64,000 nucleotides of DNA from positions 248,001 to 312,000 of the forward strand of contig NZ_QQTO01000019.1 of assembly GCF_003351345.1 (NCBI RefSeq). The letters run 5' to 3'. Positions within the stretch are counted from its first letter, which is position 1. Each line of letters starts with the position of its first letter. This document shows positions 53,084 to 64,000 of the stretch, in pieces. This DNA comes from Allobosea caraganae. Lineage in GTDB: Bacteria > Pseudomonadota > Alphaproteobacteria > Rhizobiales > Beijerinckiaceae. The position numbers and the translations under genes were made by a program. The notes beneath the pieces are model-generated. The model did not search any database. It saw only the letters and a program-made list of their open reading frames with translations, and had not been told where the DNA came from.

Positions 53084-54769
53084 CTACATCGACATCATCG
53101 CCACGAGGATCGGCCCCCAGGCTGTCAGGAGAATGTTTCCGATCGCATAGGGGACCGTGTATCCCAATGCGGGGGTGCTGCTTTGAGCCTCCTCCTGTAC
53201 CGCGCGGAGTGCTGCCGTGATCGTGCCCGCTCCGGCGCAAGCGCCTAGAACGATGAGAGGGTTCATCTTCAGCACGTAATGGCCGAAGAGAATCCCGATC
53301 GTGTGAGGCAGCAGGGCGGAAACCAGGCCGACGACGACGAGGCTGACCCCTGTCGTTTGCAAGCCGGACACGAAGCTGGGGCCGGCGCTCAGACCCACGA
53401 CGCCGATGAAAACGCAAAGACCCAACGTATCGAAGATCCAGATCGCCGGCTCCGGAATTCGCCCGAAGAAGGGGTAGACCGACCTGAGCCACCCGAAGAC
53501 CAGGCCCATGATCAGCGCGCCGCCGCTCGCGGTGAGCGTTAGCGGCACGCCCCAGACAACGACCGAGAGCAGGCCGAGCAGCCCTCCGACGAAAATCCCG
53601 AGGCCGACGAAGACCATGTCCGTTGCCGCGGTCCGGCGGTCGGGGTAGCCGAGCCCTGCTGCCGCCCGCTCGACCGCGGGAAGGGGGCCGATGAGAGACA
53701 TCACGTCTCCCAGGTTGACGCGGCTGTCGGCCGCGACCGGCATCCTGATGCCCGAGCGGGTCAGCCTGGATAGGAACACCCCGCGCGCGAAGTCGGTCTC
53801 GGCCAGCCTGGAGAGCTTCGCCCCGTCGAAAGACCGGTTGGTCACGACGACATCCAGGGCCTCAATTGAAATGCCGAGAAGCCCCTGGTCGACGACCTCA
53901 TGGCCGATGGCGTCGCCGCGCATCGCATGGGCCTCCTGCCTCGCCATGACTGCAACGACATCGCCGTCTCGGATGACGAGGTCGGGGGCGGGTTCCAACA
54001 AGCGATCGCCGCTGCGAACCCGCAGGATGAAGGCCCGCGTCTCTTTGGGAAGAGCTTCGATAGCGGCAATCGTCTTGCCTAGAAGCTGCGGATTGGTGAC
54101 CTGATAGGCTCGAACGTCGAACGCATGCGCGGCAGAGACGATACCTTCCGCCTCACCTGCCGCCTCTTCCACGTCTGATTTCATTCGCGCCGCGGTTTCC
54201 CGCAGGTTGATGCCCATGAGCTTTGGGCCGATCGTCGGGATGTACCAGACGAGCGCGGCGGTACCCACGAGATAGGTCACGGCATAGGCGACCGGAATGT
54301 TATTGACCAACGCCGCCTTCTCGGCGGCGGGAATGGCGAGGCGCTGGATCGCTTCGCCCGCCGTGCCGATGACGGTCGATTCCGAGAAGGCCCCGGCGAG
54401 GAGCCCGGCCGCCGTCCCGACATCGTAATTCATGATCTTCGAAAAGGCGAAGGCCGTCAGCAGGCAGGTGACGCACAGCAACACGGTCAAGATCACCTGC
54501 GGCAGCGCGTCCTTCTTCAGCGCGCGGAAGAATTGCGGCCCGACCTTGTAGCCCGTCGTGAACAGGAAGAGGTCGAAGAAGATCGTCTTGACCAGCGGCG
54601 GAACCTTGATGTCGAGCTGGCCGATCAGAACGCCGGCCAGCAGGCAACCCACGACGGTTCCGAGGCTGAAGCCTCCAAATTTCGCGCGGCCAATCAAAAA
54701 ACCGATTGCGATGGTAAGGAAGATCGCGAGTTCCGGGTTCTCGCGTAGAGCCGATACAATGTAATGCAT
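53084..54769 (-). CDS. aspT: AspT-family aspartate:alanine exchanger (copy 1)
   Basis: A 561-residue inner-membrane antiporter with the AspT plan: about five N-terminal helices (LAIFLTIAIGFLIGRAKFGGFSLGTVVGCLLAGVLIGQL), a cytoplasmic middle with two RCK-C-like domains (about 195-370, for instance NPQLLGKTIAAIEALPKETRAFILRV), then about six more helices ending GACAGAGTITAALRAVQEEAQSSTPALGYTVPYAIGNILL. AspT imports aspartate and exports alanine, which with cytosolic decarboxylation removes a proton per turnover. The ATG at 54769 is preferred to a TTG 36 bases upstream. It follows aspartate 4-decarboxylase after 235 bp, where an AT-rich palindrome lies. Confidence 0.92.
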   Translation of the reverse strand: MHYIVSALRENPELAIFLTIAIGFLIGRAKFGGFSLGTVVGCLLAGVLIGQLDIKVPPLVKTIFFDLFLFTTGYKVGPQFFRALKKDALPQVILTVLLCVTCLLTAFAFSKIMNYDVGTAAGLLAGAFSESTVIGTAGEAIQRLAIPAAEKAALVNNIPVAYAVTYLVGTAALVWYIPTIGPKLMGINLRETAARMKSDVEEAAGEAEGIVSAAHAFDVRAYQVTNPQLLGKTIAAIEALPKETRAFILRVRSGDRLLEPAPDLVIRDGDVVAVMARQEAHAMRGDAIGHEVVDQGLLGISIEALDVVVTNRSFDGAKLSRLAETDFARGVFLSRLTRSGIRMPVAADSRVNLGDVMSLIGPLPAVERAAAGLGYPDRRTAATDMVFVGLGIFVGGLLGLLSVVVWGVPLTLTASGGALIMGLVFGWLRSVYPFFGRIPEPAIWIFDTLGLCVFIGVVGLSAGPSFVSGLQTTGVSLVVVGLVSALLPHTIGILFGHYVLKMNPLIVLGACAGAGTITAALRAVQEEAQSSTPALGYTVPYAIGNILLTAWGPILVAMMSM

Positions 54770-54804
54770 ATTGCATCCGCCAGAAATTTTTCGATTAATG
54801 CTCA

Positions 54805-54855
54805 ATATATTCTCTAAGATGCGCTCAATATAAAAGCGAATCTTAGAGAATATAT
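54805..54855. promoter_or_regulatory. AT-rich perfect 16-bp inverted repeat in the aspT leader
   Basis: ATATATTCTCTAAGAT (54805-54820) and its exact complement (54840-54855) are separated by 19 bases, and the stem continues with CGCT/AGCG after one mismatch. The 10-mer GCTCAATATA is also directly repeated (54800 and 54823). It sits 36 bp before the aspT ATG. It can be an operator for a dimeric regulator or a leader hairpin controlling aspT apart from the decarboxylase. Confidence 0.8.
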
Positions 54856-54930
54856 CGTGTATTCAACAAAGTTCTTGTTCGTTAATCTTCCGCCGCGGTC
54901 GTTTGGCGCTGCTGCCGGCTTCCGAAGCTT

Positions 54931-54975
54931 GCGGACTGCAGTCCGCTGCGCTCCGGTTCTCGACAGTCACGCCAG
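54931..54975. repeat. Dispersed repeat with 16-bp palindrome
   Basis: The perfect 16-bp palindrome GCGGACTGCAGTCCGC is followed by CTCCGGTTCTCGAC and CACGCCAG in the same order as at 7165-7200. It lies just after the aspartate 4-decarboxylase stop, before the aspT leader. Confidence 0.55.
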
Positions 54976-55004
54976 ACGCCCTGCGTCAGCGAATTCCGAA
55001 CGGG

Positions 55005-56633
55005 CTAAGCTGGCTGCTTCATATTCTTCTGAGCCAGTTTGTAGGCTTCGAAGGCCTGTCGATAGCTGCGAGCGACCGCCCGTGTCGCCCGCCCGATCTG
55101 GGCGTAGACCTCGTCGTCGAGATTGGCGAAGGATACCCGAACCGACCAGTCCGGAGCAGAGAAGCCGCCTCCGTTCAGCAGCACGATCCCATGGTCCTCG
55201 GCCAGGCGGAACACGATGTCCAGAGGATGGACGTGCTCCTTCATATAGGCGACGACGTCCGGGCCGACATATTTATTGGCCCAGTATTCAAAGTCGACAA
55301 GGCCGTAATAGCGATCGTAGAGCTGGTTTTCCGTCAGCTCGATACCGAGGCCCGTGATCATCTGAGCGAAGCGGTTCTGGACGATGTCCATGCAGGCCTT
55401 TTGATAGGCCTTCGCCTCATCCATCATCTCCGCCAGGGAGAAAATGGACATCATCACCTGCTGCGGGAGGGAAAGCCCGGCCGTATGATTCAGCGCGACA
55501 TCGCGGCTGTCGGCGACGATCCGGTCGATCATCCTGATCTCGCGAGGTTGCAGCGTCAGTGCGCCATAGCGAGCATCGAGCACGCGTTTGATGTCCTCGG
55601 GGTGATCGGCGATTTTCCGGTCGAAAACGTTCTCCCGGTGAATGGCGATCGTGCCCAGCCGCCAGCCGGTGCAGCCAAAATACTTGGAATAGGAGTAGAC
55701 GCCGATGGTGTTGTGGGGGAGCGCGCCGAGCAGGCCGCGGAACCCTTTCACGAAGGTGCCGTACACGTCGTCGGTGAGGATCATCAGATCGGGGCGCTTG
55801 GTCTGGACCAGGTTCACGATCTTGGCGATCGTCTCCTCGCTCAAGGCAACCGCGTAGGGATTGCCGGGGTTCACCACGAAGAAGGCCTTGATCTTCGGGT
55901 CCTCGAGTTTCTTGAGCTCGGCATCGGTGAACTGGAAGCGGTTCTCCTGCGGGGCTGCCACCGTGACGATCTTCAGGCCGTAATCCTCGAGATGAGGCAT
56001 TTCGAGATAGGGCGTGAAGATCGGCGTCCCAAGGGCGATGGTATCGCCTGCGTTCAGCAGCCGATTGGCCTTCAGTGATTTGAAGATGTAGCACATGGCC
56101 GCCGTCCCGCCTTCGACCGCATAGAGATCGAACTGGCCGGGAGGACGCGGATCGCCGCACATCGCCCACATCAGGTATTCGTGCACGATGCGCTCATTAT
56201 GGACGAGCATGCGATCGGGAACGGGATAGTTGTCGCCGATGATGGAATCGACGAGCTCGTGCACGAAGGCATCGGGCTTGAAGTCGAATTTCTTGACGGC
56301 GAACGGCACCATTTCTCTTAGAAATTCCGCGCCGGGCGAACTCTGTTGACCCGCGATCCAGGCTTCGAACCGCAGGGCGATGCCGTCGGCCTTCGGCATC
56401 CCGCCGATGCCGGCCGGCTTTTGCATCACGCGTCTGCTCTCGGTGATGGCAAACTGCCCCAGGAGGAAAAACGCCTCCCGGGGGATCGTGGCCACCCAAT
56501 TCGGGTTGCCGCGTCCGGCGTTCAGCAGCGCCAGCGATGACGTTTGCGCGGTTTGCTTCGCAAGCTTGATCAGCTCGTCCTTGATCTCGAAGGGGCTGAG
56601 TTTTTCGAAGTTGTGTAGCTTAACGAGGTCCAT
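55005..56633 (-). CDS. asdA: Aspartate 4-decarboxylase (bifunctional aspartate aminotransferase)
   Basis: A 542-residue PLP enzyme that converts L-aspartate to L-alanine and CO2, consuming a cytosolic proton. The PLP lysine is K317 in YSYSKYFGCTGWRLGT; other fold-type I motifs are AGRGNPNWVAT near the N-terminus, VEGGTAAMCYIFKSLKANRLLNAGDTIALGTPIFTPY, and FFVVNPGNPYA. Length and the insertions relative to ordinary aspartate aminotransferase match the dedicated decarboxylase. It lies 25 bp after the second exchanger gene and 235 bp before aspT copy 1, so one polycistronic message is likely. A good ribosome site GGTGGAG precedes the ATG. Confidence 0.93.
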   Translation of the reverse strand: MDLVKLHNFEKLSPFEIKDELIKLAKQTAQTSSLALLNAGRGNPNWVATIPREAFFLLGQFAITESRRVMQKPAGIGGMPKADGIALRFEAWIAGQQSSPGAEFLREMVPFAVKKFDFKPDAFVHELVDSIIGDNYPVPDRMLVHNERIVHEYLMWAMCGDPRPPGQFDLYAVEGGTAAMCYIFKSLKANRLLNAGDTIALGTPIFTPYLEMPHLEDYGLKIVTVAAPQENRFQFTDAELKKLEDPKIKAFFVVNPGNPYAVALSEETIAKIVNLVQTKRPDLMILTDDVYGTFVKGFRGLLGALPHNTIGVYSYSKYFGCTGWRLGTIAIHRENVFDRKIADHPEDIKRVLDARYGALTLQPREIRMIDRIVADSRDVALNHTAGLSLPQQVMMSIFSLAEMMDEAKAYQKACMDIVQNRFAQMITGLGIELTENQLYDRYYGLVDFEYWANKYVGPDVVAYMKEHVHPLDIVFRLAEDHGIVLLNGGGFSAPDWSVRVSFANLDDEVYAQIGRATRAVARSYRQAFEAYKLAQKNMKQPA

Positions 56634-56658
56634 GATAATTCTCCACCTGCAAATATGG

Positions 56659-58350
56659 CTAAGTCATCAATATGATGATGACCATTCCCCAGATTGTGAG
56701 CAGCGTATTTCCGACCGCGTAGGTCACGGTGTAACCTAGGGCGGGCACTTGGCTCTTGGCGCTTTCGCAGATCATGCCGAGAGCAGCCGTCGTCGTGCGC
56801 GCGCCGGCGCAGGCGCCCAGCAGGATCGCCGGATCGAACCGGAACACGAACTTCCCGACGAACATCGCGAGAATCAGGGGTACGGACGTCGCGACCATGC
56901 CCCAGATGAACAAGCCGAGACCCTGGGTTTGGAGTCCCCTGACAAAGCCCGGCCCGGCAGAGATCCCGACGACGGCGATGAACATGTTGAGGCCAACCGA
57001 ATTCATGAACCAGACGGTCGAAGAGGGAATCCGGCCGAATACGGGGCGGACCGAGCGGAGCCAGCCGAAGACAAGACCGGAGATCAACGCGCCGCCGGCG
57101 GTGGAAAGCGTCAGCGGCACCCCGCCGATCTTGAAGACAATGGCTCCAATCAACGCGCCGAGCGTGATCGCACCGCCAATGAAGGCGACGTCGGCCGCGT
57201 CGCTGGGACGGTCGAGATGTCCGATGACCTTGGCGACGGCGGCAATGTCCTGAGTGCGGCCAACGATGGTCAGGATGTCGCCGCGGTGGATGATCGTGTT
57301 CGCCAGGATGGGAATGTTGGTCGCAGTCGCTCCCCTGACGATCCGCCGAAGAAAGATGCCGCGCGCCGACGGCAGCGCGGAGAGTTCGGTCAGCGTCTTT
57401 CCATCGGCGGCGCTGCTGGTGACGTAGACATCGATGCCCTCGGCCTTGATGTCGAGAAGCTCGGGGTCTTCGACCTCTTCGGCCGCGTGGCCGATCAGAT
57501 TGACCAGTGCATCGCGCGGGCCGGCGACGGCGATGATGTCGCCGGCGCGCAGCACGGTGTCTGCGGTCGCGTCCTCGATGACGCCGTCGCGGCGGATGCG
57601 CTCCACGAAGACGCGTGCGTCGGGAACGAGCGCCTCTGCCTCCGCTGCCCGCATGCCGACGGCGCGCCCGCCGCTGGGCACGCGAAAGGCCCGCAGCTCG
57701 AAACGCCGCCACGCGGAGCCGGGTCCACCGATCTCCTTTCCACCGCCCAGGCGCGCCTCATAGTCCCTGCAGGCCTGGACGAGGTCGATACCGAGCAGCT
57801 TGGGGCCGATCTGGGCCAGAACCACTGCGGAGCCCACGGTTCCGAAAATGTAGGTCACCGCATAGGCGATGGGCATCGCATCGAGCAATTCCTTCGTCTG
57901 CTCCGGCGAAAGGCCGAGGCGGTTGATGGCGTCGGTGGCCAACCCCATCGAGGCCGAAATGGTTTGGGAGCCTGCCAGGAGTCCTGCGGCGTAGCCTGGG
58001 TGATAGCCCGCCAATCTTGCGCATATGAACGGCGCAACCAGGCAGAACACGCAGACGATGACGGCGAACAGAGCCTGCGGCGCTCCGTCCTTTGCGATGC
58101 CGCGGACAAATTGCGGACCCACGCCGTAGCCCACGGCGAAGAGGAACATCAGGAAGAAGGTCGACTTGACGTTGGGCGAGATCGTTATGCCGAGCTGCCC
58201 GATGATGACGGCGGCGATCAGGGTCGAGGTCACCGCGCCGAGGCTGAAGCCTCGATAGGAAAAGCCGCCCACGTAGTAGCCAATCGCAAGCGACAGAAAG
58301 AGCGCGATCTCGGGATAGCTGCGAAGCGTGCTGACGAACCATTCGAACAT
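56659..58350 (-). CDS. AspT-family exchanger (copy 2)
   Basis: A 563-residue paralogue of copy 1 with the same two-part membrane plan: [42 protein letters not shown], two RCK-C-like domains in the middle (about 200-370), and [47 protein letters not shown] at the end. The paralogue is clearly diverged from copy 1, mainly in the cytoplasmic part and helices 3-5. It lies directly between the Orn/Lys/Arg-type decarboxylase and aspartate 4-decarboxylase, so it may exchange the former's substrate and product, or a second acidic amino acid. AGAGGGG six bases before the second in-frame ATG (58350) makes that start better than the ATG at 58356. Confidence 0.88.
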
Positions 58351-58404
58351 GCTCATCCCCTCTTGCTGAAAGCGGTGCCGAGCTGCAGCGCTCTTGCGTG
58401 TCGC

Positions 58405-61170
58405 CTAGGCTGCACGCGGCTTTTTGCGGCCGGCTTCGAGGACGTTCGTGCCCCGCCCGTGCATGAGCGCATCTGCTCGCAGCAGCTTGAGGCCCTTCGC
58501 CTTCTCGTAGCCATGGATCTCCTTCACATCGAGCTTGCGCATGAAGGTGATCGTCTCTTCCGTAACTACCTGGCCGGGCACCATGATCGGGAAGCCGGGC
58601 GGGTAGGGGATCACGAAATTGGCCGAGACCATCTCGGGTCCCTCCCGCAGGCGGCGATCGCATTCCGGGCTGTCTATCCCGACATACTCGCACTGCTCCG
58701 GGGCGTAGGCCGCGAAGAATGCGGTGCGGATGTCGCCCTCGGGCGTGGCTTTGCCGGCGTCACCGCGGAACGTCTCGTGGAAGCGGCTGAAATCAGGGAG
58801 GTCCGGCACATCCTTCATCAGGCTCTGGACACGGGCCGCGAGGGTTCGCCGGGCTTCCTCGCCACCGTGCTGGAGGCGCGTCTCGATGCCGTTGCTGATC
58901 TTCAGCAGCACGCTGATCAGCAGCGCGACATCGCTGCGCGTGTTGTTGATGTTCGATTGCAGCAGGACGGAGTTGCGGGAGGTCTTATTGACCTGAATAT
59001 TGTATTCGGCCGCGAGCAGCCCCTTGAAGCCCGTGCCGTCGAAGCCGGCGGTGCCGCAGACCAGCGTCATTCGGGTCGGATCGAGGCAGAACTCGTCTTC
59101 CCGCATGCTGCGCAACTGATCGTCCCAGCGCAGGCCGGGCGTCAGGAAATCGGTGAAGCCGCTGGTGCGATACTCCTTGGGCACCATGCCATCCGCGCCG
59201 ACGATGCTGAAATATTTCGAGATCAGCGGATGGGTGTTCACCTCGCGGCGAATATCCAGTGCGATCTCTATGGCGTTCATCACCAGGCCGTAGCCCTCGA
59301 GCTCCATTTGCCGGCGAGCGACGTCGAGGCTGGCGATGAGCTGCTGGTTCGGACTCGTGGATGCGTGAGTGAAGACGGCCTCATGGAACTGGGCCTCCAC
59401 GGTGTGGAAGTCCACGTCCCGAACGAGAACCATCGATCCCTGACGGATCGCCGACATCGACTTATGCGTGGAGTTGGTCTGGTAGACCCGTAGACGTATT
59501 GCGCGCGGGTCGGGAACAAGCCTGGTGTCCAGCAGGGCTTCCGTGGAGGGTTTGGCGCCGAGCTCGGCATGCTGGCGCTCGTACTGGGTGAGCGAGCCTG
59601 GATCTTTCATCCAGGCTTCGATGTCGGCCGCTGCTCCCATGGCGGTGCGGGGCCTGAGGAACGGCGACCAACGAGCGAATCCGAACCAGGCTTCATCCCA
59701 AAGGAAGATGAGATCGGGCTTGATCGCCAGGCACTCTTCCATCACGCGGCGTGTGTTGTAGATGTGGCCGTCGAAGGTGCAATTGGTCAGGTCAACCATT
59801 TTCACACGGTAGAGCCGGCCTTCCGCCTTGAGGTCGAGCAGCGCCTGCTTGATCGTGCGGAGCGGCACGGCGCCGTACATCGAGAATTCCGCCATCGGAA
59901 AGGCGTCGACGTAGAAGGGCTGCGCGCCGCAGAGCATCAGTCCGTAATGATGCGACTTGTGACAGTTGCGATCGAGGATGACGATGTCGCCGGGAGCGAT
60001 GAGGGCCTGCAGCACCATCTTGTTCGACGTGCTCGTCCCGTTGGTGACGAAAAAGACGTGGTCGGCGCCGAAGGCTCTTGCCGCCATGTCCTGCGCGCGT
60101 TTGATGGTGCCCGTCGGTTCCAGCAGGCTGTCGAGCCCCCCGGTGGTCGCGCTGCTTTCGGCCAGGAAGAGGTTCAGCCCGTAGAATTGCCCCATGTCGC
60201 GGATCCAGGGCGATCGGAACACCGACTTCCCCCGTGCGATCGGCAGGGCGTGGAACGTGGCGATCGGGCGCTGGGCGTAGAGCTTCAGGTTGTCGAAGAA
60301 CGGCGTCTCGAAGCGAGCCTTGATGCCCTCGAGCACGGAGAGGTGCAGTTCGAGCGGTTCCTCGATCTGGTACATGACCCGTCGGATCATCGCGGCGCGC
60401 GGATCGCCGGCAAGGCGCTCCACTTTCCTGTCCGAGAGGAGATAGAGGTCCAGGTCCGGCCGTGTCTGCTTCAGCGTTGCCGCCAGCCGCAGCGCCACGT
60501 CGGCGTCGTCGGCCTTCGCCAAGGTGGGCTGTTGCGCGGCCAGAACGTTGCGGAGCACGGGGGCATCGTGACGTGATTTGAGCGCAAAGCCTTCGTAGAT
60601 GGCGACGGCGGCGATGTCCGGGTTGATCACGGCTGCGCAGATCGCATCTTCCAAGCTGCCGACGAGCACGGCCTCATAGACGAAGGCGTCTTCAGGCCGG
60701 CGCAGCCGCCGGAATTCGGCGGCAATATGCGGCCACCGCGCCGCAGGGGCTGGCGTCAATACGAGGAGTTCAAAATAGGGGCGGTGCGGTTGCGCATCCC
60801 CGAGAGAGGACGGCAGCAGATCGGCCGGCTCCGCGAGGGACGCATCGATGGCCTGCCACTCCTTGGCGTCGTGCTTGTAGTTGCCGGTGATGGTCGCAAG
60901 CGAAATCCGTTGCGCGAGAGGCGCGAAGCCACCGGCATCGTCACTCTGAAGCCGTTCGCGCAGGGCCGTCATCAGCTGCTGTCCGGGAAAGGCGTGGAAT
61001 TCCTCGATGACACCAACTTCATCGAGCGCGGCTTCGACGACGCGCCGCTTCTCCGCGCCTTTGGCCCAGGCTCTCGCGACGGTGTGAAGCTGGCGCCAGC
61101 GATCTTGCCGCGCCGACGGCGCCGAAAAGAAATGATCGATGACGTGCGCGTCTGGAGCGGAGGTCGACAT
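58405..61170 (-). CDS. Orn/Lys/Arg decarboxylase family protein, long form
   Basis: A 921-residue PLP-dependent decarboxylase. The catalytic lysine is K570 in NSTHKSMSAIRQGSM; WDEAWFGFARWSPFL carries the conserved PLP-ring Asp, and FVTNGTSTSNKMVLQALIAPGDIVILDRNCHKSHH is the fold-type I entry. A wing domain precedes it (about 130-230) and the usual C-terminal domain follows (ANFVIPYPPGFPIMVPG). It is about 170-200 residues longer than E. coli AdiA or LdcI, because of an N-terminal extension. Substrate among ornithine, lysine and arginine cannot be told. The ATG at 61170 has GGAG eight bases upstream. It heads the four-gene block, 54 bp from copy 2. Confidence 0.88.
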   Translation of the reverse strand: MSTSAPDAHVIDHFFSAPSARQDRWRQLHTVARAWAKGAEKRRVVEAALDEVGVIEEFHAFPGQQLMTALRERLQSDDAGGFAPLAQRISLATITGNYKHDAKEWQAIDASLAEPADLLPSSLGDAQPHRPYFELLVLTPAPAARWPHIAAEFRRLRRPEDAFVYEAVLVGSLEDAICAAVINPDIAAVAIYEGFALKSRHDAPVLRNVLAAQQPTLAKADDADVALRLAATLKQTRPDLDLYLLSDRKVERLAGDPRAAMIRRVMYQIEEPLELHLSVLEGIKARFETPFFDNLKLYAQRPIATFHALPIARGKSVFRSPWIRDMGQFYGLNLFLAESSATTGGLDSLLEPTGTIKRAQDMAARAFGADHVFFVTNGTSTSNKMVLQALIAPGDIVILDRNCHKSHHYGLMLCGAQPFYVDAFPMAEFSMYGAVPLRTIKQALLDLKAEGRLYRVKMVDLTNCTFDGHIYNTRRVMEECLAIKPDLIFLWDEAWFGFARWSPFLRPRTAMGAAADIEAWMKDPGSLTQYERQHAELGAKPSTEALLDTRLVPDPRAIRLRVYQTNSTHKSMSAIRQGSMVLVRDVDFHTVEAQFHEAVFTHASTSPNQQLIASLDVARRQMELEGYGLVMNAIEIALDIRREVNTHPLISKYFSIVGADGMVPKEYRTSGFTDFLTPGLRWDDQLRSMREDEFCLDPTRMTLVCGTAGFDGTGFKGLLAAEYNIQVNKTSRNSVLLQSNINNTRSDVALLISVLLKISNGIETRLQHGGEEARRTLAARVQSLMKDVPDLPDFSRFHETFRGDAGKATPEGDIRTAFFAAYAPEQCEYVGIDSPECDRRLREGPEMVSANFVIPYPPGFPIMVPGQVVTEETITFMRKLDVKEIHGYEKAKGLKLLRADALMHGRGTNVLEAGRKKPRAA

Positions 61171-61480
61171 CACGGATACTCCGGAGTTTGTCGAAGGCGC
61201 AGATCATCTGCCGCCGAGGACGCTATTCGCGTTCGGGCGATCCAATGATCGGGTGAGACGTGCGTACTGATTTCTCCAGATTACCTCAGCACAATGGAAA
61301 GTGCCGGCGTATTGTCCTTAAGGGCAGGTTTCTGGTGTAGCGGTTTCGGTGAATAGTCTCGACGGCGGATCGTCCCTGGCGTCGCCTCGATAGCGACTGG
61401 ACGAGCTTGCTCGCTCGAACCGCGGCGGCCAGCCGTTGGCAGGCGAACTAGAACAAATATTCGTGGAGGATGCTTTCCCC
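61171..61480. other. Divergent spacer between the decarboxylase block and the secreted-protein genes
   Basis: This 310-bp region must hold the promoter of the decarboxylase operon on the minus strand and that of the small secreted protein on the plus strand. Short inverted repeats are present (for example GTCGC-N7-GCGAC near 61380), but no promoter or operator could be supported firmly. No gene is seen. Confidence 0.5.
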
Positions 61481-61759: not shown

Positions 61760-61834
61760 GGATCCCAACGCGGAATACATGACGCGTTGCTTCGCGGCAG
61801 CTGATTGCCGCCGCGTCTACGTCGGAGGAGACAC

Positions 61835-63460
61835 ATGGTTCCCCGGAATCTCATGGCCTGGTCGATCGCGATTGCCCTGTGCTCCCCGTCCTGGGCGCAG
61901 GCGCCGGTGCAGGCGCAACCTCAGCCGCAACCGTCTGCCGCAGCAAACCCGCCGGCGGCCAGCGACGCGCTCCTCAGTTCCGCGGAGCTGGAAGCATTGG
62001 TCGCGCCCATCGCGCTCTATCCCGATGCTCTGCTGGCCCAGGTGCTGATGGCATCGACCTATCCGCTCGAAGTGGTGCAGGCGGATCGCTGGGCTGCCGG
62101 GAACAAGAAGCTCAGCGGAGACGCCCTGAAACTGGCTGCTGAAAAGCAGGCCTGGGACGACAGCGTCAAGGCGCTCGTCGCCACGCCCGCCGTTCTCAAA
62201 CAGATGAGCGATAAGCTGGACTGGACCCAGAAGCTCGGCGACGCAGTCCTCGCCCAGCAGCCCGACATCATGAATGCGGTCCAGCGCATGAGGTCGAAAG
62301 CTTATGAAAACAAGAAGCTGACGTCAGGCATCCAGCAAACGGTCACGGTCGCCCAGGAGCAGGGCAGGCAGACGATCTCGATCGCGCCGACGGTCGCCGA
62401 TACGGTCTATGTCCCCTATTACGATCCCGCCGTCGTCTACGGCGCCTGGTCGTATCCGCAGTACCCGCCCTATTATTTTTCGGGCGTCGGCTATGTCGCG
62501 ACAGGTGTGCTTGCGGCAGGGGTCGCATTTGGAACGGCATATGCGCTCGGCCGTTGGGCGACCGGCGGAAACTACTGGGGCGGCTGGGGCGGTGGGGTCA
62601 ACTGGAACAGCGGCGATATCAATATCAACCGCGATCGGGTCTCGCACTGGCAGCATAACTCGCAACATCGGCAGGGCGTCCGATACAATAACGCCAACGT
62701 TCAGCAGCGGTTCGGGAGTAATACTGCTCGGGCCGGCCGTGACGCGCGGATGGATTTCCGTGGCCGAGGTGGCGACCAGCTGGGTCAACCGGGAGGCGGG
62801 CGCTCCAATTTGTCGGATCGCGGATCGGGCGATCGCGTTGGCGCCGATCGTGGTCGCGGGCAGCGCTCGCAGGCCGGAAGGCCGGGAGCCGCAACGCGCC
62901 CAGCGGCGGGTCGGACGCCTGGCGGCAGAGGCCGTGACGGTGCATTCGGTAACATGCAGTCGGGCCGGGCCGCCAATTTTCAGTCCCAGCGCGGACGGAG
63001 CAGCTTCGATTCAGGTTTTGGCGGCGGCAGGTCGTTTGCCGGCGGAGGCCGCGGCATGAGCGCCGGAGGTTTTGGCGGCGGCAGAGGATTCCACGGCGGC
63101 GGGGGTGGTGGCTTCCGCGCCGGTGGCGGCGGCGGGGGCTTCAGGGGAGGCGGCGGAGGCTTCGGCGGCGGGCGAGGCGGTGGTGGTCGCCGTTCGGATA
63201 TCCGTCTCAAGCACGAGATCGTTCTTCTTGGCCACCTGGCCGATGGCCTCGGATTCTATCGCTTCGCCTACAATGACAGCGACAAGATCTTCGTCGGCGT
63301 GATGGCGCAGGAGGTCCAAACCGTGATGCCCAGCGCGGTCTCGCGTGGGAAGGACGGCTATCTGCGCGTCCACTATGAGCGCCTCGGCGTCACGTTCCAG
63401 ACATATGATCAATGGCTGGCCACCGGCGCGAAAGTGCCGGCCGGATCAGTCCAGCGTTAG
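61835..63460 (+). CDS. DUF3300 protein fused to a glycine-rich region and a C-terminal S74-like chaperone domain
   Basis: A 541-residue exported protein. After a signal peptide (about residues 1-25) comes DUF3300 (about 50-220: SSAELEALVAPIALYPDALLAQVLMASTYPLEVVQADRW, then SIAPTVADTVYVPYYDPAVVYGAWSYPQYPPYYF). A long Gly/Arg/Ser-rich, probably disordered stretch follows (about 250-455). The C-terminus (SDIRLKHEIVLLGHLADGLGFYRFAYND, then GVMAQEVQTVMPSAVSRGKDGYLRVHYERLG) matches the intramolecular chaperone (peptidase S74) domain otherwise known from phage tail spikes, which trims itself after folding. The ATG at 61835 has a GGAGGAG site. It is followed by a DUF2950 gene, a usual partner. Confidence 0.86.
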   Translation: MVPRNLMAWSIAIALCSPSWAQAPVQAQPQPQPSAAANPPAASDALLSSAELEALVAPIALYPDALLAQVLMASTYPLEVVQADRWAAGNKKLSGDALKLAAEKQAWDDSVKALVATPAVLKQMSDKLDWTQKLGDAVLAQQPDIMNAVQRMRSKAYENKKLTSGIQQTVTVAQEQGRQTISIAPTVADTVYVPYYDPAVVYGAWSYPQYPPYYFSGVGYVATGVLAAGVAFGTAYALGRWATGGNYWGGWGGGVNWNSGDININRDRVSHWQHNSQHRQGVRYNNANVQQRFGSNTARAGRDARMDFRGRGGDQLGQPGGGRSNLSDRGSGDRVGADRGRGQRSQAGRPGAATRPAAGRTPGGRGRDGAFGNMQSGRAANFQSQRGRSSFDSGFGGGRSFAGGGRGMSAGGFGGGRGFHGGGGGGFRAGGGGGGFRGGGGGFGGGRGGGGRRSDIRLKHEIVLLGHLADGLGFYRFAYNDSDKIFVGVMAQEVQTVMPSAVSRGKDGYLRVHYERLGVTFQTYDQWLATGAKVPAGSVQR

Positions 63461-63520
63461 CAGATGAAGGAACAGGCAAGCGGTCACCCTTCAATCCACT
63501 GGACATAGGAAGCAATCACC

Positions 63521-64000
63521 ATGTCGCGGTTTTCTCCGATTGGCTCGTTTGCGACGAAACGATCTTGCATGAGCGCTGTGGCGTTGCTTGCTATGACCTT
63601 TGCCGCGAGCGCCCAGCAATCCTTCAACGCGCCGGAGGCGGCGGCCGAGGCGCTGGTCAAGGCCGTCCGCGGCGACGACGTGAAAGGGGCGCGTGCGCTG
63701 CTCGGGCGAGGGGGGGACGATATCCTGTCCTCCGGCGACGAGATCGCCGATGCCGCGTTACGCAAGCGGTTCGTCGCAGCCTATGATGCGCAGCACAAGG
63801 TCACGACCAGCGGCGACAAGGCGACGCTGATTGTCGGACAGGAGGATTTTCCATTCCCGATCCCGCTTTTCCGCAAGGGGGAGCGTTGGCAGTTCGACAC
63901 TGCCGCCGGCCGCCAGGAAATACTCTTTCGAAGGATCGGCCGCAACGAGCTCGACGCCATCCAGGTCTGCCTCGCTTATGTCGATGCGCAGAACGAGTAC
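63521..64000 (+). CDS. DUF2950 family protein, partial (right edge)
   Basis: The first 160 residues are in the window. After a signal peptide (about residues 1-35: MSRFSPIGSFATKRSCMSAV then ALLAMTFAASAQ) comes NAPEAAAEALVKAVRGDDVKGARALLGRGGDDILSSGDEIADAALRKRFVAAYDAQHK and FPFPIPLFRKGERWQFDTAAGRQEILFRRIGRNELDAIQVCLAYVDAQNEY, which match the DUF2950 family, exported proteins of unknown function often next to DUF3300. It lies 60 bp after the DUF3300 gene with an AGGA ribosome site. The C-terminus is outside the window. Confidence 0.85.
   Translation, partial: MSRFSPIGSFATKRSCMSAVALLAMTFAASAQQSFNAPEAAAEALVKAVRGDDVKGARALLGRGGDDILSSGDEIADAALRKRFVAAYDAQHKVTTSGDKATLIVGQEDFPFPIPLFRKGERWQFDTAAGRQEILFRRIGRNELDAIQVCLAYVDAQNEY

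What the first reader, a model, noticed from the sequence alone, without database searches (positions are those of the whole stretch)
53084..61170. Four-gene decarboxylation block with two AspT-type exchangers
Seen: on one strand and in order, a 921-residue Orn/Lys/Arg-type decarboxylase, an AspT-family exchanger, aspartate 4-decarboxylase and a second AspT-family exchanger, with gaps of 54, 25 and 235 bp. Known: AspT with aspartate 4-decarboxylase swaps aspartate for alanine and consumes a proton. Inferred: a combined system that uses two amino acids to remove protons or build proton-motive force, possibly for acid survival. The role of the second exchanger beside a basic-amino-acid-type decarboxylase is not covered by the known model.
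Basis: partly seen in the sequence, partly recalled or inferred. Interest (0 to 1): 0.72.

Follow-up and report, generated by a model that had tools for sequence, protein, structure and literature searches.

The report
Paired decarboxylase–AspT exchanger acid-stress block
A soil bacterium carries a conserved four-gene set in which two amino-acid-decarboxylating enzymes are matched with two different membrane exchangers, and the larger, poorly understood enzyme looks built for an acidic rather than a basic amino acid, pointing to an unstudied way of removing acid from the cell.

Summary
The four genes are real and in the stated order (a Bosea genome). The order recurs at 10 loci in 8 other Bosea genomes, in one further isolate and, with varying fourth exchanger, in three MAGs. 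The interpretation changes. (1) The 922-aa enzyme is not a known lysine/arginine/ornithine decarboxylase: its closest solved relative is M. tuberculosis Rv2531c (substrate unknown), it fails the basic-decarboxylase cut-offs, and two motifs shared by five E. coli basic enzymes (PGHxxG; GE) read ALPIARGKS and GQ. (2) Its usual partner is an AspT-family exchanger, not AspD: 88 of 96 distinct relatives with at least 54% identity have one beside them on the same strand, against 0 of 21 below. AspD is optional. (3) Where two exchangers accompany the enzyme on its strand, 37 of 39 loci combine clade A or D with B or C. Two acid-chaperone (HdeA) genes lie just past the window end; the genome has no GadB-type match. 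Best reading: a decarboxylase–exchanger pair for an acidic amino acid (glutamate or aspartate) joined to the classic AspD/AspT cycle, for proton consumption under acid stress. Substrate and acid role are inferred. New variant of a known kind.

The parts
58405..61173 (-). Large PLP decarboxylase (922 aa, 'LDC'); OKR fold family, Rv2531c-like; first gene of the block
   Evidence: PF01276 235 bits; closest PDB 9n0o/9n0n (Rv2531c) 750 bits over residues 47-904, arginine/lysine/ornithine enzymes at most 188 bits; PLP lysine of S-x-H-K in 77 of 77; AlphaFold2 pLDDT 80, Foldseek best hit 9n0o, TM 0.92 by target length
56659..58356 (-). AspT-family exchanger 1 (565 aa), clade A; proposed partner of the large decarboxylase
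   Evidence: TIGR03802 682 bits; clade A of the FastTree, 53 of 57 members next to LDC, in loci mostly fetched for LDC; solved AspT 9oqy 206 bits
55005..56633 (-). Aspartate 4-decarboxylase AspD (542 aa)
   Evidence: TIGR03801 771 bits; PDB 2zy2 522 bits over residues 9-533
53084..54769 (-). AspT-family exchanger 2 (561 aa from ATG; 573 from TTG 54805), clade B; proposed partner of AspD or accessory exchanger
   Evidence: TIGR03802 632 bits; clade B of the FastTree, 13 of 17 members next to AspD (most are Bosea)
54803..54857 (-). A+T-rich inverted repeat (16-bp perfect arms, 18-pair predicted stem) in the AspD-AspT2 spacer, peculiar to this copy
   Evidence: Fold z-score -5.85; 16-bp arms, not found in the 10 other Bosea spacers; no second exact copy of its 14-base core pair in the genome
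61805..63460 (+). DUF3300 protein, divergent neighbour (island context, not part of the pathway)
   Evidence: PF11737 261 bits
63521..64000 (+). DUF2950 protein, continues past the window end; followed by two HdeA-family genes outside the window (G000:C11:312512-312853 and 312857-313177)
   Evidence: PF11453 377 bits; PF06411 46.7 and 47.5 bits against 22

Best explanation
The block encodes two decarboxylation/exchange cycles run together. The known one: AspT-type exchange brings in aspartate(-) for alanine(0), and AspD removes CO2 and one proton. The new one: the 922-aa enzyme, an OKR-fold PLP decarboxylase whose motifs appear changed to accept an acidic amino acid (my lean is glutamate to GABA; aspartate to beta-alanine nearly as likely), is fed by its own AspT-family exchanger (AspT1), which swaps the anion outside for the neutral product inside. 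Each turn consumes a cytoplasmic proton and moves net negative charge inward, which raises pH and builds proton-motive force. AspT2 serves AspD, or widens the substrate range. Shown here: gene content, co-conservation, partner rule, motif replacement. Inferred: substrates, direction of exchange, acid-stress role, co-transcription.
For: LDC-exchanger pairing: of the 80 named loci kept, 67 have an AspT-family gene within 600 bp downstream on the same strand, 69 up- or downstream, and 21 hold AspD anywhere in the fetched stretch; 4 are cut off downstream. Pairing follows LDC subfamily: 89 of 97 rows at 54% identity or more against 0 of 22 below, or 88 of 96 against 0 of 21 without duplicates, with no row between 52.8 and 56.0%. 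In an even draw of 398 genomes of the phylum, 16 besides the window passed E 1e-150: all 6 with at least 54% identity have the exchanger (4 of the 6 from one genus), none of the other 10. Reverse control in the same draw, searching with a clade-D exchanger: 6 genomes passed E 1e-90; the 5 at 65-91% identity all lie directly downstream of LDC (4 from one genus), the sixth (34%) is a distant relative in a genome without a strong LDC match. Two same-strand exchangers near LDC: A+C 17, A+B 13, C+D 6, B+D 1; two others (A with an unrelated type, L053; D+E, L099). Charge change: R314 77 of 77, K316 77 of 77, Q868 76 of 76, against PGHxxG and GE in 5 of 5 E. coli basic decarboxylases; in the wider set of 100 close relatives R314 100, K316 99, Q868 98 of 98 scored. 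No GadB-type match (PF00282) in the genome. Acid context: two HdeA-family genes 3.3-4.0 kb from the LDC start; HdeA about 0.15 kb upstream and divergent in the Rokubacteriota copy; HdeA about 5 kb and carbonic anhydrase about 2 kb from LDC in Rhizobium T1473.
Against: No assay. R314/K316 lie in the least confident long stretch of the model (304-351, pLDDT under 50), so their place in the pocket is not shown. The distant subfamily without exchangers keeps R314 (21 of 21), K316 (19 of 21) and Q868 (21 of 21), so they are not tied to the exchanger. That the replaced Glu touches the distal amine in basic enzymes is recalled, not tested. Clade-A exchangers also stand next to AspD in fetched stretches without LDC (Ruegeria L208, Caballeronia L207), so AspT1 could equally be AspD's. 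Most loci were fetched by LDC similarity, which inflates clade counts. HdeA was found in 4 of 105 scanned sources, which by my rough estimate is near chance; none of the other nine LDC-bearing Bosea genomes has HdeA close to LDC on the contigs seen; the 9-of-10 versus 11-of-27 co-occurrence (p = 0.010) ignores relatedness. A supposed GABA cluster beside one LDC proved to be ectoine use. TM3 residue R76 of AspT is G in AspT1 and K in AspT2. 8 of 96 close relatives lack the exchanger.
Confidence: 0.5

Rival explanations
1. The large enzyme is a second aspartate-consuming enzyme (aspartate to beta-alanine); both decarboxylases share imported aspartate and the two exchangers export the two products.
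For: Clade-A exchangers pair with AspD in Ruegeria and Caballeronia stretches without LDC, and are the only exchanger near LDC in 21 loci, at least 18 of them without any AspD match in the fetched stretch; this is simplest if the imported substrate is the same. No PanD match in this genome.
Against: PanD is missing in 60 of 61 Bosea genomes with or without LDC, and the one with PanD (G024) holds LDC, so its absence says nothing. Two decarboxylases for one substrate in one block would be redundant.
Confidence: 0.25
2. The large enzyme decarboxylates a basic amino acid (Lys, Arg or Orn), as its annotation suggests, and its diamine leaves by another route; the neighbouring exchangers serve AspD only.
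For: PF01276 membership and the PLP-lysine motif; AdiA/LdcI are the next fold matches after Rv2531c.
Against: Fails the cut-offs of all NCBIfam models of basic enzymes that it matched (best 173.5 bits against 968); PGHxxG and GE replaced; exchanger beside LDC in many loci that lack AspD (69 of 80 against 21 of 80).
Confidence: 0.13
3. The block is a catabolic or energy-yielding module (proton-motive force from amino acids when respiration is limited) rather than an acid-survival system.
For: This is the role given for AspD/AspT in Tetragenococcus halophilus (passages of PMC9508256). HdeA proximity is rare over the family.
Against: HdeA near this copy and near the Rokubacteriota and Rhizobium T1473 copies; recurrent neighbours of envelope or stress type by representative (DUF3300, DUF2950, porins, PPK2).
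Confidence: 0.3
4. The neighbourhood is a chance assembly of unrelated genes kept together by common descent.
For: Bosea copies are related, and most loci in the sample are alphaproteobacterial.
Against: Exchangers of four clades (A, B, C, D) stand beside LDC, in genera from Acetobacter and Gluconobacter to Bradyrhizobium, Lysobacter, Comamonas and Acinetobacter; sharp subfamily split; reverse control 5 of 5.
Confidence: 0.03

Closest known systems
asp operon (AspD + AspT) of Tetragenococcus halophilus and of Lactiplantibacillus/Enterococcus plasmids
   Same: AspD and an AspT-family exchanger as neighbours; the window's AspD and both exchangers pass the family cut-offs
   Different: Two exchangers of different clades and an extra decarboxylase; the two Firmicute AspT sequences form their own clade
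Rv2531c of M. tuberculosis (PDB 9n0n, 9n0o, 9n0p)
   Same: Homology over residues 47-904, 750 bits, same fold; PGQ and the Arg of ARGKS shared (alignment)
   Different: The Lys of ARGKS is Ala there; activity not clarified (passage in PMC12910592); relatives below 54% identity sampled here lack exchanger neighbours (0 of 21 distinct; Rv2531c's own neighbourhood was not looked at)
E. coli amino-acid-dependent acid resistance systems (GadB-GadC, AdiA-AdiC, CadA-CadB, SpeF-PotE)
   Same: Would work like them: cytoplasmic decarboxylase plus substrate/product antiporter; HdeA genes nearby as in the E. coli acid island
   Different: Exchanger family is AspT/AAEx, not the permeases AdiC/CadB/PotE/GadC (family of these recalled); decarboxylase is a separate OKR branch
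LdcI/AdiA/SpeF (LAOdc) decarboxylases
   Same: Fold family, PLP lysine motif S-x-H-K, D-x-A-W
   Different: 922 aa against 711-755 aa, with extra N-terminal sequence; PGHxxG and GE replaced

Membership tests
Aspartate 4-decarboxylase (TIGR03801) | Full-length match over curated cut-off | tested here: met
   771.4 bits against 435.1, profile 1-520 of 521; solved AspD 2zy2 aligned over residues 9-533
Aspartate 4-decarboxylase (TIGR03801) | Aspartate to alanine activity | not testable with these tools
   needs assay
AspT / AAEx exchanger (TIGR03802, PF06826) | Full-length match over cut-off, two Asp-Al_Ex halves and TrkA_C | tested here: met
   AspT1 682.1 and AspT2 631.8 bits against 546.95; two PF06826 stretches each plus TrkA_C
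AspT / AAEx exchanger (TIGR03802, PF06826) | TM3 Arg76 of T. halophilus AspT | tested here: inconclusive
   G in AspT1, K in AspT2, but E in the AspD-linked Enterococcus and Lactiplantibacillus AspT, so not a family-wide feature
AspT / AAEx exchanger (TIGR03802, PF06826) | Asp:Ala exchange | not testable with these tools
   needs liposomes
OKR (Orn/Lys/Arg) decarboxylase fold family | PF01276 match and PLP-lysine motif | tested here: met
   235.5 bits against 27; lysine of S-x-H-K 77 of 77
Lysine, arginine or ornithine decarboxylase proper | NCBIfam equivalog/subfamily cut-offs | tested here: not met
   LdcC model 173.5 against 968, arginine model 172.7 against 1167, ornithine models 156 against 794 and 150.5 against 1310, lysine model 148.2 against 1056
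Lysine, arginine or ornithine decarboxylase proper | Motifs PGHxxG and GE shared by CadA, LdcC, AdiA, SpeF, SpeC | tested here: not met
   ALPIARGKS and GQ instead; that these motifs define the family is my inference from five sequences
Rv2531c-like decarboxylase | Homology over nearly the whole length and same fold | tested here: met
   750 bits, residues 47-904; TM 0.92 by target, 38% identity
Rv2531c-like decarboxylase | PLP-induced tetramer-dimer change | not testable with these tools
   reported for Rv2531c in a passage of PMC12910592
E. coli-type decarboxylase/antiporter acid resistance | Antiporter of the AdiC/CadB/PotE/GadC permease type | tested here: not met
   Neighbouring exchangers are AspT family
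E. coli-type decarboxylase/antiporter acid resistance | Acid survival phenotype | not testable with these tools
   needs mutants

The most novel reading that the evidence does not exclude
A widespread, uncharacterised amino-acid-dependent acid-defence system: an OKR-fold decarboxylase branch switched from basic to acidic amino acids (Glu or Asp), coupled not to an amino-acid permease but to AspT-family exchangers that come in two complementary classes (A/D with mostly SQT and GAR/GSR motifs, B/C without), one of each where there are two. It would fill the missing decarboxylase-antiporter role in acid-tolerant bacteria without GadB/GadC and predict the substrate class of the Rv2531c family.
Probability: 0.4. 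Interest if true: 0.8.

Novelty: new variant of a known kind. Interest (0 to 1): 0.6.

Why it matters
Decarboxylase-antiporter pairs are the textbook means of surviving acid, and the textbook list is short. A pair made of an OKR-fold enzyme with changed motifs and an AspT-family exchanger, seen here from acetic acid bacteria to rhizobia and Lysobacter, would add a system and give the Rv2531c family a testable substrate class. It also bears on a stated gap: acid-tolerant Castellaniella is proposed to decarboxylate glutamate with an unidentified enzyme, and the antiporter is called a remaining question (passages of PMC12915299); whether that strain holds this pair was not examined.

Tried and rejected
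GABA-pathway context: an aminotransferase and a succinate-semialdehyde dehydrogenase beside LDC-AspT in Phyllobacterium looked like GABA catabolism; NCBIfam showed the regulator is EhuR (ectoine use, 535 bits against 480), so it was dropped as evidence for glutamate.

PanD absence as evidence for a beta-alanine role: dropped because 60 of 61 Bosea genomes lack PanD.

HdeA as a family-wide marker: only 4 of 105 scanned sources; kept as local evidence only. None of the other nine LDC-bearing Bosea genomes has HdeA close to LDC on the contigs seen (places; several contigs are short).

Structural placement of R314/K316: the AlphaFold2 model is unreliable at 304-351 and no coordinates were at hand; not claimed.

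Promoter and terminator scans: 1 promoter-like site against 2.2 expected, 8 terminator-like against 6.8; uninformative.

R76 of AspT as a specificity marker: varies also among AspD-linked exchangers. Clade D on plasmids, as a check of sampling: no close match (3 records, 32-33% identity), so the check was made on whole genomes.

Genes beside the LDC copies that lack an exchanger were only listed, not identified.

Literature for a printed account of the pair: searches; none of the listings and passages I saw names an LDC-AspT pairing. The primary Rv2531c paper is not held. Passages of PMC7866039 and PMC8983666 gave no substrate-contact residues.

Full report
What is there. The window is a 64-kb piece of a 1.0-Mb contig of a 6.17-Mb genome. 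The nearest named relative carrying the block is Bosea sp. BK604 (L048, 87% identity in the decarboxylase), whose contig matches in length one of the same-genus genomes (G013), so the genus is Bosea. On the minus strand stand, in order, a 922-aa decarboxylase (here LDC), exchanger AspT1, AspD and exchanger AspT2, without internal stops. The first three are 48 and 25 bp apart; AspT2 follows after 199 bp (TTG start) or 235 bp (ATG start at 54769, which I think likelier because the TTG lies at the edge of a hairpin).

Identity of the parts. AspD and both exchangers pass the curated cut-offs of their families. LDC belongs to the OKR fold family, but the nearest solved structure is Rv2531c of M. 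tuberculosis at 750 bits, against 188 bits or less for arginine, lysine and ornithine enzymes. An AlphaFold2 model from 18 sequences (pLDDT 80, pTM 0.85) finds the same protein first (9n0o, TM 0.92 by target length, 38% identity), with AdiA/LdcI-type entries at TM about 0.54-0.58. The activity of Rv2531c was not clarified according to a passage in PMC12910592; the primary paper was not held.

Co-conservation of the block. Among 61 genomes (own plus 60 relatives) searched with LDC, nine of the 36 other Bosea genomes have a copy of at least 69% identity. In eight of these nine, ten loci carry the same four-gene order (L035-L044; two genomes have two copies). The ninth, G011 (L046), has LDC, a divergent exchanger and a 76% AspT2 but no AspD in the 20 kb fetched. 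A four-gene order LDC-AspT-AspD-AspT also occurs in the Rhizobiales isolate AFS057535 (L049, probably Bosea by identity) and in MAGs assigned to Rhizobiaceae (L092), Rokubacteriota (L101) and Proteobacteria (L126). In L092 and L126 the fourth gene is from another exchanger clade. MAG assignments may be wrong.

Who belongs with whom. In it, 67 of 80 LDC genes have an AspT-family gene within 600 bp downstream on the same strand, 69 of 80 up- or downstream, 13 on both sides, and 21 of 80 have AspD in the fetched stretch; 4 of the 80 are cut off downstream. Pooling all loci that could be scored (119 of 122 rows), pairing within 700 bp is 89 of 97 at 54% identity or more to the window LDC, and 0 of 22 below (Fisher p about 1e-17, which ignores relatedness). 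Two loci were counted twice; without them it is 88 of 96 and 0 of 21, and no row lies between 52.8 and 56.0%. In an even draw of 398 genomes of the phylum, 16 besides the window passed E 1e-150: the 6 with at least 54% identity all have the exchanger, the other 10 do not; 4 of the 6 are one genus. In the class draw (337 genomes) the six full-length copies other than the window's lie at 47-53% and have no same-strand exchanger in the 1.2-1.5 kb on either side. As a reverse control, a clade-D exchanger searched in the phylum draw found 6 genomes at E 1e-90: the 5 at 65-91% identity all lie directly downstream of LDC, again 4 from one genus; the sixth, at 34%, is in a genome without a strong LDC match. 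So there is an exchanger-coupled LDC subfamily, and AspD is the optional gene.

Two exchanger classes. A FastTree of 146 AspT proteins, mostly from loci fetched for LDC and cut into clades at a depth I chose, separates clade A (window AspT1; 57 members, 53 next to LDC), B (window AspT2; 17, of which 13 next to AspD), C (26) and D (27, all next to LDC, none next to AspD). Support values are 0.84, 1.0, 1.0 and 1.0. At 96 LDC loci, loci with two same-strand exchangers within 5.5 kb are A+C 17, A+B 13, C+D 6 and B+D 1; two others are A with an unrelated type (L053) and D+E (L099). Two of the same class, A with D, or B with C, do not occur among these 39. Eleven of the thirteen A+B loci are Bosea (window included), so the rule rests on fewer independent events than the counts suggest. 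Ten Bradyrhizobium D loci have an opposite-strand clade-E copy. LDC with one exchanger has A (21), D (9) or B (3; in one of these, L117, a D-like copy in two pieces was not counted). A and D mostly share SQT and GA/GS-R motifs in the two repeat loops, B and C do not. This suggests two non-interchangeable transport roles, and that the A/D role goes with LDC. Against an exclusive assignment: clade-A exchangers pair with AspD in Ruegeria and Caballeronia stretches without LDC.

Substrate of LDC. The PLP lysine and D-x-A-W motifs are kept in 77 of 77 sequences, so catalysis is plausible (7 of 80 named loci were not in that alignment). Two places change in kind: where CadA, LdcC, AdiA, SpeF and SpeC have PGHxxG, the family has ALPIARGKS (R314 77 of 77, K316 77 of 77); where they have GE, it has GQ (76 of 76). 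In the wider set of 100 close relatives K316 is 99 of 100. Losing an acid and gaining two basic residues fits an acidic rather than a basic substrate. From memory, the Glu lies in the pocket of the ornithine enzyme; I did not verify this. The model cannot place R314/K316 (pLDDT under 50). The distant, uncoupled subfamily shares R314 (21 of 21), K316 (19 of 21) and Q868 (21 of 21; one locus counted twice), and Rv2531c keeps R and Q but has Ala for K (alignment). AspT carries Asp/Ala, and the abstract of PMC9527358 names succinate and glutamate exporters in the same family. The genome has no GadB-type match. I lean to glutamate because AspD already serves aspartate in the same block, but aspartate to beta-alanine is nearly as likely.

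Role. Just past the window end lie the rest of DUF2950 and two HdeA-family genes (G000:C11:312512-312853 and 312857-313177), 3.3-4.0 kb from the LDC start and divergent from it; further on, an RND pump with a fusion protein and a histidine kinase. The E. coli acid island also joins hdeA/hdeB, an RND pump and a decarboxylase; the likeness may be convergent. The Rokubacteriota copy has an HdeA-like frame about 0.15 kb upstream, divergent, and the Rhizobium T1473 plasmid copy has HdeA and carbonic anhydrase within about 5 kb. Over all loci HdeA proximity is rare (4 of 105 sources), and HdeA presence in LDC-bearing versus other Bosea genomes is 9 of 10 versus 11 of 27 (p = 0.010 without correction for relatedness). 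An acid role is plausible, not shown; a purely energetic role as in Tetragenococcus (PMC9508256, passages) is the main alternative.

Verdict. The reading should shift from 'basic decarboxylase beside a surplus exchanger' to 'two decarboxylase-exchanger cycles, one of them new', with an exchanger-coupled branch of the Rv2531c-like enzymes as its core. The listings and passages I saw hold no account of this pairing, in a library that lacks most subscription journals.

Noticed in passing
54803..54857 (-): A+T-rich inverted repeat (16-bp perfect arms; 131-nt fold z-score -5.85) in the AspD-AspT2 spacer; its core pair has no second exact copy in the genome and it is absent from the ten other Bosea spacers, which are G+C-rich and 86-149 bp between match ends. 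Possible attenuator or small insertion remnant.
   Followed up: partly
G000:C11:312512-313177 (just past window end, L222 2512-3177): Two tandem HdeA/HdeB-family genes; a third HdeA match lies at C11:337536-337811 and a fourth on contig 40.
   Followed up: yes
61805..64000 (+) and L222: DUF3300 and DUF2950 genes divergent from the block; clusters whose representatives are DUF3300 and DUF2950 recur in 31 and 27 of 98 LDC loci (two of the 98 are duplicates; only representatives were scanned), with PPK2, SulP, AI-2E and histidine-kinase clusters.
   Followed up: partly
L047, L194, L196, L198, L271-L284: The distant LDC subfamily without exchangers often sits with a carbon-nitrogen hydrolase (12 of 20 loci), a weak ATP-grasp match annotated 'biotin carboxylase' in two records (15 of 20) and a C45/AAT-type protein (13 of 20); product unknown.
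   Followed up: partly
L200, L089; L280: Ectoine-use type genes (EhuR regulator, class III aminotransferase, semialdehyde dehydrogenase) beside LDC-AspT in Phyllobacterium, and a class III aminotransferase beside a distant LDC relative; possible 2,4-diaminobutyrate link.
   Followed up: no
Bosea genus, 61 genomes: No PanD (aspartate 1-decarboxylase) match in 60 of 61 Bosea genomes, so the genus may obtain beta-alanine another way.
   Followed up: no
G024, G027, G025: Two Bosea genomes carry two complete four-gene copies each, and a third has an extra LDC fragment (query residues 2-169) on another contig.
   Followed up: no
L117 8378-10022; L135: The clade-D-like exchanger of a Thermodesulfobacteriota MAG appears in two pieces, and one alphaproteobacterial LDC match has an internal stop.
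   Followed up: no
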